Positions 2,150-10,112 of a stretch of 17,041 nucleotides of DNA are shown piece by piece. The notes under the pieces are model-generated. The model did not search any database. It saw only the letters and a list, made by a program, of their open reading frames with translations, and was not told the origin of the DNA. The position numbers and the translations under genes are program-made. Origin of the DNA: an uncultured Gemmatimonadota bacterium (GTDB lineage: Bacteria > Gemmatimonadota > Gemmatimonadetes > Gemmatimonadales > GWC2-71-9); the NCBI GenBank assembly GCA_946887295.1, contig CAMPKP010000064.1, positions 1 through 17,041 of the forward strand, in the 5' to 3' direction. Each line of letters begins with the position of its first letter. Position 1 is the first letter of the stretch.

Positions 2150-2179
2150 TTGACAAAGGAGCGCGCCGCCCCGTAGCTT
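2150..2179 (+). promoter_or_regulatory. Promoter of the aromatic leader/aroF unit
   Basis: A perfect -35 TTGACA (2150-2155) is followed after 18 nt by TAGCTT (2174-2179), a TAnnnT -10. The expected start, about 7 nt downstream, falls on the ATG of the leader peptide at 2186. Confidence 0.6.
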
Positions 2180-2185
2180 CAGCCC

Positions 2186-2272
2186 ATGGTCCGCTCACAG
2201 AGCTCGTGGTTCTTCTACTTTACCAACGCCGGCGCGGCGCTCCAGCCGTCCGGTGTCGGTGGCGTAGTCTAG
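2186..2272 (+). CDS. Aromatic amino acid leader peptide (28 aa) with WFFYF run
   Basis: A short ORF, ATG at 2186 and TAG at 2270-2272, encodes a peptide starting MVRSQSS. Next comes the run Trp-Phe-Phe-Tyr-Phe (codons 8-12, 2207-2221: tgg ttc ttc tac ttt), then TNAGAALQPSGVGGVV. Five consecutive aromatic codons covering all three aromatic amino acids are the signature of a ribosome-mediated transcription attenuator, as in E. coli pheL and pheM. The ORF lies between a TTGACA promoter and a strong intrinsic terminator placed directly before the DAHP synthase/prephenate dehydratase gene. That is the position expected for control of aromatic synthesis by charged-tRNA supply. No Shine-Dalgarno is present and the promoter predicts a start at the ATG itself, so translation is probably leaderless. 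The stop codon falls in the loop of a long hairpin (2248-2286). Confidence 0.8.
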   Translation: MVRSQSSWFFYFTNAGAALQPSGVGGVV

Positions 2273-2304
2273 CGCCCCGACCGGACCGCCCGACGCCCCG
2301 CCGG
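2229..2304 (+). promoter_or_regulatory. Alternative RNA pairings of the attenuator
   Basis: Several mutually exclusive pairings are visible. First, 2248-2264 pairs with 2273-2286: GTCCGGT/ACCGGAC, CGG/CCG and GGCG/CGCC, with small bulges and the leader stop in the loop. Second, 2229-2239 (CCGGCGCGGCG), just after the aromatic codons, pairs with 2294-2304 (CGCCCCGCCGG) with one C-C mismatch, and so would sequester the 5' arm of the terminator. Third, 2250-2265 can pair with 2293-2304 with bulges. Fourth, 2274-2284 is a near copy of the terminator 5' arm and could pair with its 3' arm. Which fold wins when the ribosome stalls cannot be decided by eye. Confidence 0.55.
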
Positions 2305-2330
2305 ATTCCCCGGCGGGGCTTTTTGTTTTT
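2295..2330 (+). terminator. Rho-independent terminator of the attenuator
   Basis: A perfect 10-bp stem GCCCCGCCGG/CCGGCGGGGC (2295-2304 and 2310-2319) has a 5-nt loop, followed by TTTTTGTTTTT (2320-2330). It sits 18 bp before the ATG of the fusion gene and after a promoter on the same strand. It must therefore be conditional unless the main gene has another promoter, and none is visible in the 18 bp. Confidence 0.9.
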
Positions 2331-2348
2331 CATCCTCGGAGCGTACGC

Positions 2349-4187: not shown

Positions 4188-4454
4188 TTACGGCACCGTC
4201 GTCCCGCGCCGTCCCACGAACATCCGGTAGATCAACAGCAGGAGCAGTGCGCCGATGATCGAGGCGATGATCCCAGGACCCTCGCCGGGATTGGCGTACC
4301 AGCCGAGCGCCCGGCCCAGAAATCCGGCCAGCAGCGCGCCCGCGACGCCGATCAGCATGGTGATGAAGAACCCGCCGGGATCCTTCCCGGGCATCAAGAA
4401 CTTCGCGATCGCACCGACCACCAACCCGATGATCAAGGTCCACAGGATTCCCAT
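4188..4454 (-). CDS. GlsB/YeaQ/YmgE family stress-response membrane protein
   Basis: The 88-aa protein has the family layout of three hydrophobic helices: GILWTLIIGLVVGAIAKFLM at the N-terminus, the signature AKFLMPGKDPGGFFITMLIGVAGA, and a C-terminal GIIASIIGALLLLLIYRM. Members are small inner-membrane proteins, historically called transglycosylase-associated, and are often induced by general or acid stress; the molecular role is not settled. The ATG at 4454 is supported by GGAGGG 5 nt upstream, so the longer open frame to 4520 is not used. It lies 79 bp downstream of the PDZ gene on the same strand. A TATATCTT at about 4480 (minus strand) could be its own -10, so it may be a separate transcript or the last gene of the sigma-factor operon. 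Confidence 0.88.
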   Translation of the reverse strand: MGILWTLIIGLVVGAIAKFLMPGKDPGGFFITMLIGVAGALLAGFLGRALGWYANPGEGPGIIASIIGALLLLLIYRMFVGRRGTTVP

Positions 4455-4533
4455 AGTTCCCTCCAAGGTGGGCCGAAGATATACCAGCGTCCCGGGTCGA
4501 ACATCTGTGAGCGGGCGCACACGCGCGGGCAGG

Positions 4534-6038: not shown

Positions 6039-6595
6039 ACGATCACCTCTTCCCCCAGCCACCGGCGGAGCCGGGCATGGGCCCGGGCCAGCTGCGACTT
6101 CGAGAAGCTGGGGGTCTTCCCCATCATCCCGGCGATCTCGTCGTGGGTGTAGCCCTCGACGTCGTGCAGCCAGACCACCGCGCGGGAGACCTCCGGCAGG
6201 CGCTCCAGCGCCGCCTCGAGGTCCATCCGGAGGTGGGTCTCGTCATGCCGGCGCCCCACCAGCTCGTCGTGCAGCTCGTCGGTGTCGCGGTACTTGTTGC
6301 GGCGGAGGCGCATGAGCGCCTTGCTGGCGGCGATGGTCCGGATCCAGCCCCACAGGCTCCCCTCCTCCCGATACCGGCCGATGCTCCGGCAGACCTCGAA
6401 GAAGGTCTCCTGGAGCACGTCCTCGGCGTCTTCTTTGGTCCGGCAGATCCGGCGGGCGAGGTTGTAGACCGGCACCTCGAACGCCCGGTAGAGCGCCTCG
6501 AGGGCGGTCTCGTCCCCCTGTCGCGCCCTGGCAACCACGGACTCGGCATCGGCGAGGAGATAGGACTCCATGGACAAGGTCCTGGTCATGGTCAT
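6035..6595 (-). CDS. ECF RNA polymerase sigma factor (RpoE-like)
   Basis: The 186-aa protein has only the two ECF regions. Sigma-2 spans about 20-95 (ALEALYRAFEVPVYNLARRI, DAEDVLQETFFEVCRSI, the -10 recognition/melting part SLWGWIRTIAASKALMRLRR). Sigma-4 spans about 125-178 (LEAALERLPEVSRAVVWLHDVEGYTHDEIAGMMGKTPSFSKSQLARAHARL), the helix-turn-helix that reads the -35. GGAGG stands just before the ATG at 6595; a second ATG 6 nt further in (6589) is equally possible. It is first in an operon with the anti-sigma and PDZ genes and divergent from the iron transporter. Two GGAAC copies upstream may be part of an autoregulated promoter. Confidence 0.93.
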   Translation of the reverse strand: MTMTRTLSMESYLLADAESVVARARQGDETALEALYRAFEVPVYNLARRICRTKEDAEDVLQETFFEVCRSIGRYREEGSLWGWIRTIAASKALMRLRRNKYRDTDELHDELVGRRHDETHLRMDLEAALERLPEVSRAVVWLHDVEGYTHDEIAGMMGKTPSFSKSQLARAHARLRRWLGEEVIV

Positions 6596-6665
6596 GGTCC
6601 TCCAAAGATGCACGCAGCGGGGAGATGGTTGCAGGTCCGCCGTTCCGCCGTTCCGCGCTTCCGCC

Positions 6666-6671
6666 TACCTT
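6666..6671 (+). promoter_or_regulatory. -10-like TACCTT for the VIT1 gene; leaderless start
   Basis: TACCTT is followed by exactly 6 nt and the ATG at 6678. No Shine-Dalgarno precedes the ATG. The -35 is weak (TTCCGC at a 17-nt spacer), so this rests mainly on geometry shared with 911 and 2174. Confidence 0.35.
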
Positions 6672-6677
6672 CCCCTC

Positions 6678-7799
6678 ATGCCCGCCTCGACCCCTCCCGC
6701 CGAGTGGCTCCACCACCTGAAGGATGAAGCCGACGCGGCCTTCCTCTACCGCGAGCTCGCCCGGGCCGAGCCCGATGCCGGCCGCGCCGACCTGTTCCTG
6801 AAGCTGGCCGACGTGGAAGACCGCCACGTGGCGATGTGGCGCAAGCTGCTCGCCGAGAACGGTCATGCGGTCGGGGTGCCGGCGCCGAGCCGGGCCGCCC
6901 GCCTCCGCGCCTGGCTGGCCCGCCGGCTCGGCGGCTCGGTGCTCCTCCCGATGCTCCTCGCCGAGGAGGGCCGCGAGGTCAAAGGGTACCTCCGCCTCTA
7001 CGACTCTACCCCCGACGGCCCGGTCGCCCCGACCGCGCTCCAGCTGGCCCAGGAGTCGAAGGAGCACGCCCAGACCCTGGCCCGGATGACCGGCGCCGAA
7101 GGCGAGCCCTGGCACAAGACCGGAGCCGGCGGGTTCCTCCGCAACGTGGTCTACGGCTTCAACGACGGCCTGACCGCCAACTTCGGCCTGGTCGCCGGCA
7201 TGATCGGCGCCCAGGGAGGCATGGAGCTGGCCGGCCACACGGTGGTCGTGGCCGGACTCGCGGGAGCGATGGCGGACGCCCTCTCCATGGGCGCCTCCGG
7301 CTACCTCGCCGCCAAGAGCGAGCGCGAGGTCTTCGAGCACGAGATCGCGATGGAGCGGGAGGAGATCCGGCTCATGCCGGACCTCGAGCGCGAGGAGCTG
7401 AGCCTGCTCTACCAGGCCAAGGGGATCCCCGCCGCGCAGGCCGAGTCGCTGGCCACCCAGGTGATGAGCGACCCCGAGCGGGCCCTCGGCGAGAAGGTGC
7501 GCGAGGAGCTCAAGATCGGGGAGGCGAGCAGCACCCCCATGCGCGAGGCCTGGATCACGGGCGCCGCGACCGCGCTCGGCGCGGTCATCCCGGTGGCGCC
7601 GCTGCTGGTGAGCACGGCGCCGTGGGCGATCTGGACCTCGTTCGCGCTCGCGATGGTCTCGCACTTCGCCGTGGGCGCCGCCCGGAGCGTGTTCACCGGC
7701 CGCGGGCTCCTGCGCAGCGGCATGGACATGTTCCTCGTGGGACTCGGCGTCGCGGTGGTGGGATACCTGCTGGGCGACTGGGTCGTCGGCATCCTGTGA
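6678..7799 (+). CDS. Ferritin-like domain fused to VIT1/CCC1-type iron/manganese transporter
   Basis: The 373-aa membrane protein belongs to the erythrin-vacuolar iron transport type (MbfA-like), which exports Fe(II), or Mn(II), across the inner membrane. The N-terminal ferritin-like domain (about 1-135) shows iron-ligand patterns: E17/E26, E47DRH50, EEGRE at 96-100, and ESKEH at 126-130. The VIT1 part (about 150-373) begins NVVYGFNDGLTANFGLVAGM. It contains MADALSMGASGYLAAKSEREV and the cytoplasmic acidic metal-binding helices EHEIAMEREEIRLMPDLEREE, and ends with three hydrophobic helices. The ATG at 6678 is chosen because the domain begins there; the longer frame from 6570 overlaps the sigma gene. 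It precedes the UV endonuclease by 7 bp, so the two are probably co-transcribed. The transported metal is inferred from the family. Confidence 0.92.
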   Translation: MPASTPPAEWLHHLKDEADAAFLYRELARAEPDAGRADLFLKLADVEDRHVAMWRKLLAENGHAVGVPAPSRAARLRAWLARRLGGSVLLPMLLAEEGREVKGYLRLYDSTPDGPVAPTALQLAQESKEHAQTLARMTGAEGEPWHKTGAGGFLRNVVYGFNDGLTANFGLVAGMIGAQGGMELAGHTVVVAGLAGAMADALSMGASGYLAAKSEREVFEHEIAMEREEIRLMPDLEREELSLLYQAKGIPAAQAESLATQVMSDPERALGEKVREELKIGEASSTPMREAWITGAATALGAVIPVAPLLVSTAPWAIWTSFALAMVSHFAVGAARSVFTGRGLLRSGMDMFLVGLGVAVVGYLLGDWVVGIL

Positions 7800-7806
7800 G
7801 GAGCCC

Positions 7807-8715
7807 ATAGCGACCGGCCTCATCCCGCGCCTCGGCCTCTGCTGTCAGTTCCTCGATGCGCCGATCCGGTTCCGCACGGCGACCCATCGCTATGTCTCCA
7901 CCCTGACGCCCGCACGCCGGCGGGCCCATCTGTCCGCCATCGCCGCGGAGAACGCGGCGGCGCTCGCCGCCGCGGTGGAGCAGTGCGCCGCGCTCGGCAT
8001 CGGCGCGTTCCGGATCAACAGCCAGATCCTGCCGCTGGGCACCCACCCGGTGAGCCGGTACACCCTGGAGGCGCTGGACCGGACGGGTGAGATCCGCGCC
8101 GCCTTCGAGCGGGCCGGGTCGCTGGCGCGGGACCGGGACGTGCGGCTCAGCTTCCATCCCGACCAGTTCGTGGTGCTCAACTCGGAGCGGCCGGAGGTGG
8201 TGCGGGCCTCGGCGGAGGAGCTGGAGTTCCAGGCCGCGATCGCCGAGCTCATCGGGGCGGGCACGCTGGTCTTCCACGGGGGGAGCACGGCGGGCGGCAT
8301 CCCCGCGGCGCTGGAGCGGCTGGAGCGCGGACTCGACCTGCTGAGCGAGCGGGCGCGAGCCCGGGCGGCGCTGGAGAACGACGATCACCGTTTCGCGCCG
8401 TCCGACCTCCTGCCGCTCTGCCGGCGAGCCGGGGTGCCGATGGTGTACGATGCGCACCATCACCGCTGCCACCCGGACGGGCTCTCGGTGGAGGAGGCGA
8501 CGGAAGGGGCGTCGGCGACCTGGCGCGGGCGCGAGCCCTGGATGCACATCTCGTCGCCGCGGGACGGCTGGCGCGCGAGCAACCCGCGGCCGCACGCCGA
8601 CTACATCGACCCCGAGGACTTTCCCGCCGCCTGGCTGGGGCGGCGGATCACCGTGGACGTCGAGGCGAAGGCGAAGGAGCGGGCGGTCCTGGCCCTGATG
8701 GAGGCTCTGCGGTGA
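7807..8715 (+). CDS. uvsE: UV damage endonuclease UvsE/UvdE, non-canonical start
   Basis: This protein nicks DNA 5' to UV photoproducts and other distorting lesions, giving a repair route alternative to UvrABC. Reading from codon 7807, conserved sequence starts at once: RLGLCCQFLDAPIRFRTATHRYV, then INSQILPLGTHP, SFHPDQFVVLNS, FHGG, LENDDHRF, YDAHHHRCHPDGLS, HISSPRDG, PHADYI and DVEAKAKE. Metal-site residues are visible: H117, H157, E190, D215, H218, H247, H263, E286. No ATG, GTG or TTG lies in frame before 7975, yet 56 codons of family-conserved sequence precede 7975. A GAGGAG (7798-7803) sits 3 nt before an in-frame ATA at 7807, which I take as the start or as a mutated or misread ATG. The length (302 aa) fits the family. 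It is tightly linked to the VIT1 gene. Confidence 0.88.
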   Translation: MATGLIPRLGLCCQFLDAPIRFRTATHRYVSTLTPARRRAHLSAIAAENAAALAAAVEQCAALGIGAFRINSQILPLGTHPVSRYTLEALDRTGEIRAAFERAGSLARDRDVRLSFHPDQFVVLNSERPEVVRASAEELEFQAAIAELIGAGTLVFHGGSTAGGIPAALERLERGLDLLSERARARAALENDDHRFAPSDLLPLCRRAGVPMVYDAHHHRCHPDGLSVEEATEGASATWRGREPWMHISSPRDGWRASNPRPHADYIDPEDFPAAWLGRRITVDVEAKAKERAVLALMEALR

Positions 8716-8768
8716 GCCTGCGGTTACCCGGGGCGCGAGTGCATCTTGTATGCGAAGGGAGGCTGCCC

Positions 8769-10112
8769 ATGGACCGTCGCAAGTTCGTCCGGAGCATGAG
8801 CGGCCTTGCCGCTCTGACGATGTTGCCGCCCCGCGGTGACCGGCGCCCGACCGGCCGTGCGCCCAACATTCTGCTCATCGTCGCCGATGACCTCGGCTAT
8901 GCGGACCTCAGCATCACCGGGCGCAGCGACTACCAGACCCCGGCCATCGACCAGATCGGGCGCGAAGGCGCGCTGCTGAGCCAGGCGTATTCATCGGCGC
9001 CGGTCTGTTCGCCTACCCGCGTTGCGCTCATGACGGGCCGCTATCCGGCCCGCTACCCCGCGGGCCTCTACGAGCCGCTCACCACCCAGGCCCTCGGGCT
9101 CGCCCCACATCCGGCCACGCTCCCGCGCCTGCTCAGGAACGCCGGGTATCACACCGCTCTGGTGGGCAAGTGGCATCTCGGGCTGCTGCCGCAATTCCAT
9201 CCGCTCAGGCATGGCTTCGACGAGTTCTACGGCTTTCTCGGTCCTGGTGCCGATTACGCCAGCCATCGCGACGTCGCGACGCGGGCGGTCTCCTACTTCC
9301 AGGATGGGGAGCGGACGATCCGGCGAGCGGGCTACCTCACGGATCTGTTCACCGACCGTGCCGTCGAGATCGTGGGTCGCCGGCGCCGGAGGCCGTTCTT
9401 CCTGAGCCTGCAATACAATGCTCCGCATTGGCCCTGGCAGGCGCCCGGGGACTCGCCGTACCCGGACACCCTGCCACCGAGAGCCGGCGGCTCACCCGAG
9501 GTCTACGCCCGCATGATGCGGAGCATGGATGAGGGGGTCGGGCGTGTGCTCGATGCCCTGCACCGCCGCCGTATCGAGCGAGACACCCTGGTGGTGTTCA
9601 CCAGCGACAACGGGGGCGAGCGCTTCTCGCACATGGAGCCCTTCAGCCAGGGCAAGATGACGCTCTGGGAAGGGGGCATTCGGGTTGCCGCCGTCGCGCG
9701 ATGGCCGGGCGTCATCCCGGCCGGAAGCCGGTGCGATCAGGTATGCGCGACGTTCGATCTTCCGGCGACGGCGGCCGCGCTCGCGTCGACCCGGGCTGAC
9801 GACATGGCGCCCTTCGACGGCATCGACCTCATGCCCGCGCTGCGGGGTGGAGCGCCTCGGCCGCGCGAGCTCTCGTGGCGGCTGGCGCAACGACAGCAGC
9901 AGAGCGCGCTGCGCAGCGGGGACTGGAAGTACCTGAGGGTCGCGACCGACGAGTATCTCTTCGACCTCGAGACCGATCCCGGCGAGAAACACGACCGCAG
10001 CACGGAACACCCCGAGGTGCTCGCGGAGCTGCGGCGCAAGTATGCGGACTGGGAGGGCGAGATGCTGGTGCCGGCCCCTCTCGAGGTGGACGGCTCCCGG
10101 TCGCCGCGCTGA
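8769..10112 (+). CDS. Tat-exported sulfatase (arylsulfatase family)
   Basis: The 447-aa alkaline-phosphatase-superfamily hydrolase cleaves sulfate esters. Metal aspartates D40-D41 are in NILLIVADDLGYADL. The sulfatase signature C80-S-P-T-R84 is followed by VALMTGRYP, where Cys80 must be converted to formylglycine. GKWHLG follows, and VVFTSDNGGE holds the late Asp-Asn metal pair. The C-terminal DWKYL..DEYLFDLETDPGEKHD is the usual sulfatase ending. The N-terminus MDRRKFVRSMSGLAAL is a twin-arginine signal, so the folded enzyme is exported. The ATG at 8769 has GGGAGG 7 nt upstream; the frame opens earlier at 8712 but lacks a ribosome site. It lies 53 bp after uvsE and ends 19 bp from convergent leuS. 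The natural substrate cannot be read from sequence. No formylglycine-generating enzyme or carbohydrate cluster is nearby. Confidence 0.93.
   Translation: MDRRKFVRSMSGLAALTMLPPRGDRRPTGRAPNILLIVADDLGYADLSITGRSDYQTPAIDQIGREGALLSQAYSSAPVCSPTRVALMTGRYPARYPAGLYEPLTTQALGLAPHPATLPRLLRNAGYHTALVGKWHLGLLPQFHPLRHGFDEFYGFLGPGADYASHRDVATRAVSYFQDGERTIRRAGYLTDLFTDRAVEIVGRRRRRPFFLSLQYNAPHWPWQAPGDSPYPDTLPPRAGGSPEVYARMMRSMDEGVGRVLDALHRRRIERDTLVVFTSDNGGERFSHMEPFSQGKMTLWEGGIRVAAVARWPGVIPAGSRCDQVCATFDLPATAAALASTRADDMAPFDGIDLMPALRGGAPRPRELSWRLAQRQQQSALRSGDWKYLRVATDEYLFDLETDPGEKHDRSTEHPEVLAELRRKYADWEGEMLVPAPLEVDGSRSPR

What the first reader, a model, noticed from the sequence alone, without database searches (positions are those of the whole stretch)
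2186..2348. Leader-peptide attenuator reading all three aromatic amino acids upstream of a prephenate dehydratase-DAHP synthase fusion
The sequence shows a 28-codon ORF with consecutive codons for Trp-Phe-Phe-Tyr-Phe (2207-2221), then a hairpin whose loop holds the leader stop codon. A perfect 10-bp terminator with a T-tract (2295-2330) and the ATG of the aromatic pathway gene (2349) follow. Ribosome-mediated attenuation is well known for enteric pheA, pheST and trp operons. A mixed W/F/Y sensor controlling the first, shared step of the pathway together with the Phe branch would be an unusual design, and I know of no description in this lineage. The mechanism itself is inference.
Basis: partly seen in the sequence, partly recalled or inferred. 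Interest (0 to 1): 0.85.

Follow-up and report, generated by a model that had tools for sequence, protein, structure and literature searches.

The report
Aromatic leader-peptide attenuator in Gemmatimonadota
Just in front of a fused gene for making aromatic amino acids, a soil bacterium carries a tiny gene rich in codons for exactly those amino acids and a switchable RNA stop signal, which very probably lets the cell make the enzyme only when the amino acids run short; the trick is known from other bacteria, but this is an unusually compact version in a phylum where it seems not to have been described.

Summary
All 16 loci examined (window plus 15 Gemmatimonadota genomes; in one, L010, the contig ends inside the gene) have, before the prephenate dehydratase-DAHP synthase gene, a leader ORF with an aromatic-codon cluster and a terminator. 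At the last five cluster codons 13, 14, 14, 14 and 16 of 16 leaders are aromatic; at the next eight, none. (2) The antiterminator was found: in 16 of 16 the nascent RNA after the cluster folds into one long rod that uses the terminator's 5' arm, with the stop codon overlapping the apical loop. The modelled rod tolerates a ribosome up to the last Phe codon and is lost four to five codons later. (3) 'All three amino acids' is weaker: Phe 16 of 16, Tyr 13, Trp 11; Phe-rich, Trp-free leaders precede some other pheA genes of the phylum. A Phe-Tyr-Phe leader before a DAHP synthase is known in Corynebacterium glutamicum. Verdict: very likely a true ribosome-mediated attenuator, a new variant of a known kind; Trp sensing plausible, unproven.

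The parts
2150..2179 (+). Predicted promoter: TTGACA (2150-2155), 18-nt spacer, TAGCTT (2174-2179), placing the start site at the leader ATG
   Evidence: Sequence. TTGAC starts 36 nt before the leader ATG in 13 of 16 loci, 38 in L007 and L024, and 30 before the first, 36 before the second in-frame ATG in L026. Against: the promoter scan found no site; the -10 matches only 3 of 6.
2186..2272 (+). Leader peptide ORF, 28 codons plus TAG, probably leaderless
   Evidence: a leader ORF in 16 of 16 loci
2207..2221 (+). Regulatory codons Trp-Phe-Phe-Tyr-Phe
   Evidence: aromatic in 13, 14, 14, 14 and 16 of 16 loci at these five places, 0 of 16 at each of the next eight codons
2229..2242 (+). Segment 1: near-copy of the terminator 3' arm (one C-C mismatch), 5' strand of the outer antiterminator helix
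   Evidence: begins 10 nt after the first base of the last Phe codon
2248..2286 (+). Segments 2 and 3: inner hairpin (2248-2259 with 2277-2286) whose apical loop the leader stop codon overlaps
2295..2304 (+). Segment 4: terminator 5' arm, also 3' strand of the antiterminator
2310..2330 (+). Segment 5: terminator 3' arm (2310-2319) and T tract (2320-2330)
2338..2341 (+). GGAG Shine-Dalgarno-like site of the main gene
   Evidence: Sequence; GGAG stands before the main ATG in 15 of 16 loci of the alignment, not in L027
2349..4073 (+). Regulated gene: prephenate dehydratase - ACT - DAHP synthase fusion, 574 aa

Best explanation
Ribosome-mediated transcription attenuation with a leaderless leader peptide. 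Transcription starts at the leader ATG (predicted). RNA polymerase makes the leader RNA while a ribosome translates it. If charged Phe-tRNA (and probably Tyr- or Trp-tRNA) is scarce, the ribosome halts on the aromatic codons; its front edge then lies just before segment 1. Segments 1-4 fold into one long rod (1 pairs with 4, 2 with 3), which captures the terminator's 5' arm before the 3' arm is made, and polymerase reads through into the PDT-DAHP synthase gene. If the amino acids are plentiful, the ribosome runs on to the stop codon at the rod's apex, opens 2:3 and separates 1 from 4; arm 4 pairs with arm 5 and transcription stops near 2328. Without any translation the rod would form, so the predicted default is 'on'. 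Shown here: sequence, conservation, geometry and computed folds. Inferred: start site, stalling, termination, and which amino acids count.
For: Leader, cluster and terminator in 16 of 16 loci. The rod is the minimum-energy fold of the nascent RNA with a ribosome held at the cluster in 16 of 16, -39.6 to -53.0 kcal/mol; folded free, z is -2.1 to -6.1 against dinucleotide shuffles. The stop codon overlaps the rod's apical loop in 16 of 16, even in L004, which has lost one base after the cluster and reads the rest in another frame: the part after the cluster is conserved as RNA and stop position, not as peptide. Ribosome scan: on average 13.9 pairs between segments 1 and 4 for A sites before the last Phe codon, 12.2 at it, 1.4 four and 0.2 five codons later, 0.0 from six on (pairs bridging the ribosome are excluded by construction). 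The last Phe codon starts 12 nt before the GGCGCGGC-type block in 15 of 16 and 11 in L004. A covariance model hit the 15 genomes of the order that hold this gene and nothing convincing in the other 273. Similar Phe-rich leader-terminator units precede some other pheA genes of the phylum.
Against: No transcript or reporter data. At equilibrium the terminator beats the rod by 6.2 to 20.6 kcal/mol in 16 of 16 full-length folds with a stalled ribosome, so antitermination must be kinetic. Base-pair covariation is not above shuffles (5 pairs changed on both sides, shuffles 3.7, sd 1.0); the terminator pairs show none: the core is nearly invariant. The -10 box is weak and the promoter scan found no site. 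The ribosome front edge used (12 nt past the A site's first base, 15) is a recalled value. The model R1 was built from the loci that it then found, and it missed the Phe-rich leader of L028, so its silence elsewhere does not exclude other attenuators.
Confidence: 0.86

Rival explanations
1. It is an attenuator, but it senses phenylalanine alone; Tyr and Trp codons are passengers.
For: Phe in 16 of 16 leaders, Tyr in 13, Trp in 11. Trp needs three changes on the protein tree (L010 not in that tree). L026 and L027, the most divergent of the fusions (70-72%), have no Trp or Tyr; neither has the leader of the related chorismate mutase-PDT-DAHP synthase gene L028. In C. glutamicum the FYF leader AroR responds to Phe limitation but, per a review (passage read), not to Tyr availability.
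Against: Trp persists in 11 of 16 leaders, at shifted places in L005, L007 and L021, while codons just before the cluster drift. A stall at the Trp place leaves the modelled rod as intact as a stall at Phe.
Confidence: 0.4
2. The hairpin and T tract are only an ordinary terminator of an upstream unit, and the short ORF with aromatic codons is a coincidence.
For: The same kind of hairpin (GCCCCGCCGG with CCGGCGGGGC) stands at other places in these genomes, apparently at gene ends (weak hits L047-L050).
Against: The upstream neighbour lies on the other strand and starts at about 2136, so no upstream gene needs a terminator here; cluster, spacing, rod, stop position and terminator are conserved together in 16 of 16.
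Confidence: 0.03
3. A metabolite- or tRNA-binding RNA (riboswitch or T-box) controls the gene, the ORF being incidental.
For: A strong conserved RNA fold before a biosynthetic gene.
Against: No Rfam family at gathering threshold; the coding constraint (aromatic codons conserved in frame) and the ribosome-edge geometry would be unexplained.
Confidence: 0.03
4. Translation of the main gene, rather than transcription, is the main output: the alternative folds alter access to its ribosome site.
For: GGAG and ATG lie within 30 nt of the terminator, and in the full-length fold of the window part of the GGAG pairs with bases just 5' of the terminator, so an added effect on translation is not excluded.
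Against: A perfect GC hairpin followed by a T tract, in 16 of 16 loci with a T-rich tail, is the mark of transcription termination.
Confidence: 0.06

Closest known systems
AroR leader before aroF, Corynebacterium glutamicum (Neshat et al. 2014, itself not read; described in PMC11802643 and PMC4046766, passages read)
   Same: Leader peptide with Phe-Tyr-Phe before a DAHP synthase gene, ribosome-mediated attenuation.
   Different: Different phylum; only Phe-Tyr-Phe is mentioned there; the target here is a PDT-DAHP synthase fusion; sequence homology was not tested. The review reports a response to Phe limitation and none to Tyr availability.
PheL leader before pheA, Escherichia coli (named in a passage read; details recalled)
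   Same: Phe codons in a leader before a prephenate dehydratase gene, attenuation by charged Phe-tRNA.
   Different: Here probably leaderless, mixed aromatic codons, one nested rod as antiterminator with the stop codon at its apex, and DAHP synthase fused to the target.
Multivalent leaders of thr and ilv operons, enteric bacteria (recalled, no call)
   Same: One leader with codons for several amino acids of a branched pathway.
   Different: Branched-chain or Thr/Ile pathways, not aromatic.
Leader peptides of Streptomyces lividans (PMC8079986, passages read)
   Same: Several leader peptides said there to be transcribed leaderless, some followed by hairpin and uridine-rich stretch.
   Different: Leu, Trp, Ala, Ile, Met and Thr leaders are listed there; no aromatic mixture and no DAHP synthase in the passages seen.

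Membership tests
Ribosome-mediated (leader-peptide) transcription attenuator | Short ORF with clustered codons for the pathway's products | tested here: met
   16 of 16 loci, (translation itself not tested)
Ribosome-mediated (leader-peptide) transcription attenuator | Intrinsic terminator between leader ORF and biosynthetic gene | tested here: met
   for the window; hairpin folds in 16 of 16
Ribosome-mediated (leader-peptide) transcription attenuator | Antiterminator that excludes the terminator, free when the ribosome stalls on the regulatory codons | tested here: met
   Computed fold and ribosome scan only; covariation not above shuffles; terminator favoured at equilibrium
Ribosome-mediated (leader-peptide) transcription attenuator | Read-through rises when the cognate charged tRNA falls | not testable with these tools
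   Needs expression data
Any family of Rfam 15 (leaders, T-box, riboswitches) | Covariance-model match at the curated threshold | tested here: not met
   0 matches in the window
Corynebacterial AroR element | Leader with Phe and Tyr codons before a DAHP synthase | tested here: met
   Window WFFYF; Phe in 16 and Tyr in 13 of 16 loci; so it works like AroR
Corynebacterial AroR element | Common descent with AroR | not tested
   The C. glutamicum sequence was not fetched
Leaderless leader transcript | Transcript begins at the leader start codon | tested here: inconclusive
   -35 spacing nearly constant but no transcript data; -10 weak

The most novel reading that the evidence does not exclude
A three-input aromatic attenuator: stalling at Trp, Phe or Tyr each releases a PDT-DAHP synthase fusion, so one RNA switch reads the whole aromatic pool; it evolved from Phe-rich, Trp-free leaders of pheA, gaining a Trp codon after DAHP synthase was fused to the gene, and uses a single nested rod with the stop codon at its apex, on by default, on a leaderless transcript.
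Probability: 0.4. Interest if true: 0.65.

Novelty: new variant of a known kind. Interest (0 to 1): 0.5.

Why it matters
It would extend leader-peptide attenuation to a phylum for which my paper searches showed no description (0 papers; ten of 322 listed, none on the subject by title). It offers a natural series (Phe only; Phe and Tyr; Phe, Tyr and Trp) in which the sensed amino acids can be compared with the fused enzyme's role. The rod with the stop codon at its apex gives an unusually simple, testable rule for how ribosome position sets termination, without a Shine-Dalgarno site for the leader.

Tried and rejected
Own-genome searches: no whole genome is held for this window. Viral contigs gave no relative. 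Weak covariance hits (E 1e-4 to 0.01; L047-L053) were inspected: L047-L050 and L053 are hairpins of the same kind without an aromatic leader, L051 and L052 look like chance; rejected. Leaders before 28 anthranilate synthase-like loci and 3 second DAHP synthase loci: my first scan took the wrong gene position for a few loci cut by contig ends; the corrected scan found four short ORFs with scattered Trp and none with a terminator, in 29 of 31 loci that have at least 450 nt upstream; L069 and L080 have almost no upstream sequence. A pattern search for Trp-Trp leaders gave matches in 13 of 14 genomes, in numbers like those of the reversed control pattern; from the listed matches I saw no clear leader, but the 30 fetched loci were not read one by one. 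Survey of prephenate dehydratase: of 96 places in 94 of 150 genomes I scanned 87 loci (86 besides the fusion L108); not scanned there were six fusion genes covered elsewhere, L028 and two fragments in G124. Seven of 87 passed the mechanical filter (aromatic cluster in a short ORF plus hairpin and T run), but 4 of 87 passed on the reverse strand too, and 0 in each of 5 shuffled sets: the count alone is weak. Besides L108 I keep L089, L102 and L106 (and L028) as convincing by -35 spacing, cluster and, for L089, L102 and L106, fold (z -2.6 to -3.4); L100 and L166 as moderate (z -1.2 and -1.8; L028's fold alone is also weak, z -1.2); and reject L088 (no TTGAC within 50 nt). Covariation as proof of the rod was tried and does not stand out. 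A tree of 16 proteins (15 fusions and L028) does not settle whether Trp was gained once (3 changes, 53 of 500 shuffles as low, long outgroup branch). One script reported zero terminator pairs with the ribosome at the stop; that was a fault of the constraint, so I folded the RNA downstream of the ribosome instead, where the terminator forms in 16 of 16.

Full report
WHAT IS THERE. WFFYF is the only run of four or more aromatic codons in any frame of the 17-kb window. The main protein is prephenate dehydratase (residues 3-183), ACT (202-266) and DAHP synthase (321-559), the last of the TIGR01361 type. Relatives that bear names are called Gemmatimonadales or Gemmatimonadetes. The gene seems to stand alone: the upstream neighbour is divergent (1186-2136) and the downstream one convergent (4188-4520).

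CONSERVATION. I collected 16 loci: the window, ten from a scan of GTDB genome contigs (L001-L010; an eleventh, L011, is only 35% alike, comes from an Anaerolineales genome and was left out) and five from searches of whole genomes (L021, L024-L027). Fifteen show the whole fusion; in L010 the contig ends after residue 190, so the fusion is assumed there. A more distant gene of the order, L028 (45%), is a chorismate mutase-PDT-DAHP synthase and is treated apart. All 16 have a leader ORF and a terminator between a TTGAC box and the main ATG. Relative to the last Phe codon, aromatic residues occupy places -4 to 0 in 13, 14, 14, 14 and 16 of 16 leaders, place -5 in 5 of 16, places -8 to -6 in 1 of 48 and places +1 to +8 in none. 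Phe is in 16 of 16, Tyr in 13 (not L008, L026, L027), Trp in 11 (not L006, L008, L010, L026, L027).

PROMOTER. The first base of TTGAC lies 36 nt before the leader ATG in 13 of 16; in L026 it is 30 nt before the first and 36 before the second in-frame ATG; in L007 and L024 it is 38. In the window TAGCTT then occupies -12 to -7. This is the place of a promoter whose start site is the leader ATG itself, so the leader would be translated without a ribosome-binding site, as reported for several Streptomyces lividans leaders (PMC8079986, passages read). The -10 is a poor match and the scan did not report the site; no transcript data exist here.

THE ANTITERMINATOR. The stretch right after the aromatic codons (2229-2238) is a near-copy of the terminator's 3' arm, with one C-C mismatch, and so can pair with the 5' arm. 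Folding each nascent RNA up to the end of the 5' arm, with a ribosome held at the cluster, gave in 16 of 16 a single long rod: segment 1 with 4 outside, 2 with 3 inside. The stop codon overlaps its apical loop in 16 of 16. Energies run from -39.6 to -53.0 kcal/mol; z from -2.1 (L027) to -6.1 (L004) against 200 shuffles each. Sliding a ribosome along the leader keeps on average 13.9 pairs between segments 1 and 4 for A sites up to one codon before the last Phe, 12.2 at it, 1.4 four codons later, 0.2 five codons later and 0.0 from six codons on, as far as printed (15 or 16 codons); pairs bridging the ribosome were excluded by construction. The last Phe codon starts 12 nt before the GGCGCGGC-type block in 15 of 16 and 11 nt in L004. 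Thus the aromatic codons occupy the last places from which a halted ribosome spares the rod. L004 has lost one base after the cluster and reads the rest in another frame, but keeps the fold and a stop codon in the apical loop: the later codons serve the RNA.

RESULTS AGAINST. With the whole leader made, the terminator is more stable than the rod by 6.2 to 20.6 kcal/mol in 16 of 16, so the switch must be decided while the RNA is being made. Pair changes on both sides (5 pairs) do not exceed shuffles (3.7, sd 1.0), although pairing itself (83.7% of cells) is higher than in 497 of 500 shuffles and than in all six slid registers; the terminator has no compensatory change. Both follow from near-invariance, but they mean that the rod rests on folding and geometry, not on covariation. 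In the full-length fold of the window part of the main gene's GGAG is paired, so an added effect on translation is not excluded.

DISTRIBUTION. A covariance model built from the 16 loci hit 19 of 288 genomes of the order: 15 true hits, all before this gene in the 15 genomes that hold it (one search lists 17 matches; the other two are L028's genome and a lone DAHP synthase half), and 4 further genomes plus a second place in G230 with weak hits that on inspection show no aromatic leader. Of 395 genomes of the phylum 17 were hit, 12 of the same true ones and 5 weak. The model did not find L028's leader, so it sees only close kin. Some unfused or otherwise fused prephenate dehydratase genes of the phylum carry Phe-rich leaders of their own: L028 (AFFFSF), L089 (AFFAFTFFAF), L102 (YGFSFTF), L106 (TYFIDLDFFF), and less surely L100 and L166. 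TTGAC lies 35 to 38 nt before a plausible start in all six (for L089 and L100 this is a GTG inside the listed ORF, and for L166 either of two ATGs, counted by eye); L089, L102 and L106 also fold into rods that take up the terminator's 5' arm. None has Trp; L102, L106 and L166 have Tyr. The mechanical filter alone is not selective (7 of 87 forward, 4 of 87 reverse), so this part is suggestive. I infer that a Phe-rich, Trp-free leader is the older state and that Trp was added in the fusion lineage; the tree does not prove it.

WHICH AMINO ACIDS. Phe is the constant core. A Trp codon kept in 11 of 16 leaders next to drifting codons speaks for selection, and a DAHP synthase makes sense of it. But a second protein, 52-55% like the DAHP synthase half, exists in 5 of 5 relatives searched (three typed), the three inspected lack a leader with a terminator, and the C. 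glutamicum FYF leader reportedly does not respond to Tyr availability. I found no Trp-type leader with a terminator before anthranilate synthase-like genes either (28 loci, two of them without usable upstream sequence).

COMPARISON WITH THE LITERATURE. The kind is known: enteric pheA and trp leaders, and AroR of C. glutamicum before aroF (PMC11802643 and PMC4046766, passages read; the original 2014 paper was not seen). Searches: Gemmatimonadetes with leader peptide and attenuation, 0 papers; three of the terms leader peptide, attenuat, tyrosine codons, phenylalanine codons, 0; two of Gemmatimonadota, attenuation, leaderless, 322 papers, ten listed, none on this subject by title; prephenate dehydratase, DAHP synthase, fusion, leader peptide, 4 papers, seen as a listing only. 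So I know of no description in this phylum, within those searches of an open-access library.

VERDICT. A genuine, conserved leader-peptide attenuator, very probably leaderless, with a compact nested antiterminator; new variant of a known kind. The three-amino-acid reading is plausible and directly testable.

Noticed in passing
L089, L100, L102, L106, L166, L028 (upstream of prephenate dehydratase): Phe-rich leader peptides with terminator, and TTGAC 35-38 nt before the likely start codon, precede some unfused or otherwise fused pheA genes of the phylum: possible leaderless Phe attenuators.
   Followed up: partly
window 2229-2238 against 2295-2304, and the aligned loci: Segment 1 keeps a C-C mismatch with the terminator's 5' arm in the window and most loci, and in L026/L027 the mismatch has moved by a base; perfect pairing seems to be avoided.
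   Followed up: no
L028 (G034): A chorismate mutase-prephenate dehydratase-DAHP synthase gene with an AFFFSF leader: a related but separate domain fusion.
   Followed up: partly
window 6570-7796, +: VIT family membrane domain behind a rubrerythrin-like N-terminal part (the latter weak, below cut-off).
   Followed up: no
window 7975-8715 and 8712-10112, +: UvdE-type UV endonuclease ORF overlapping a sulfatase ORF by 4 bases (mechanical start codons, not verified).
   Followed up: no
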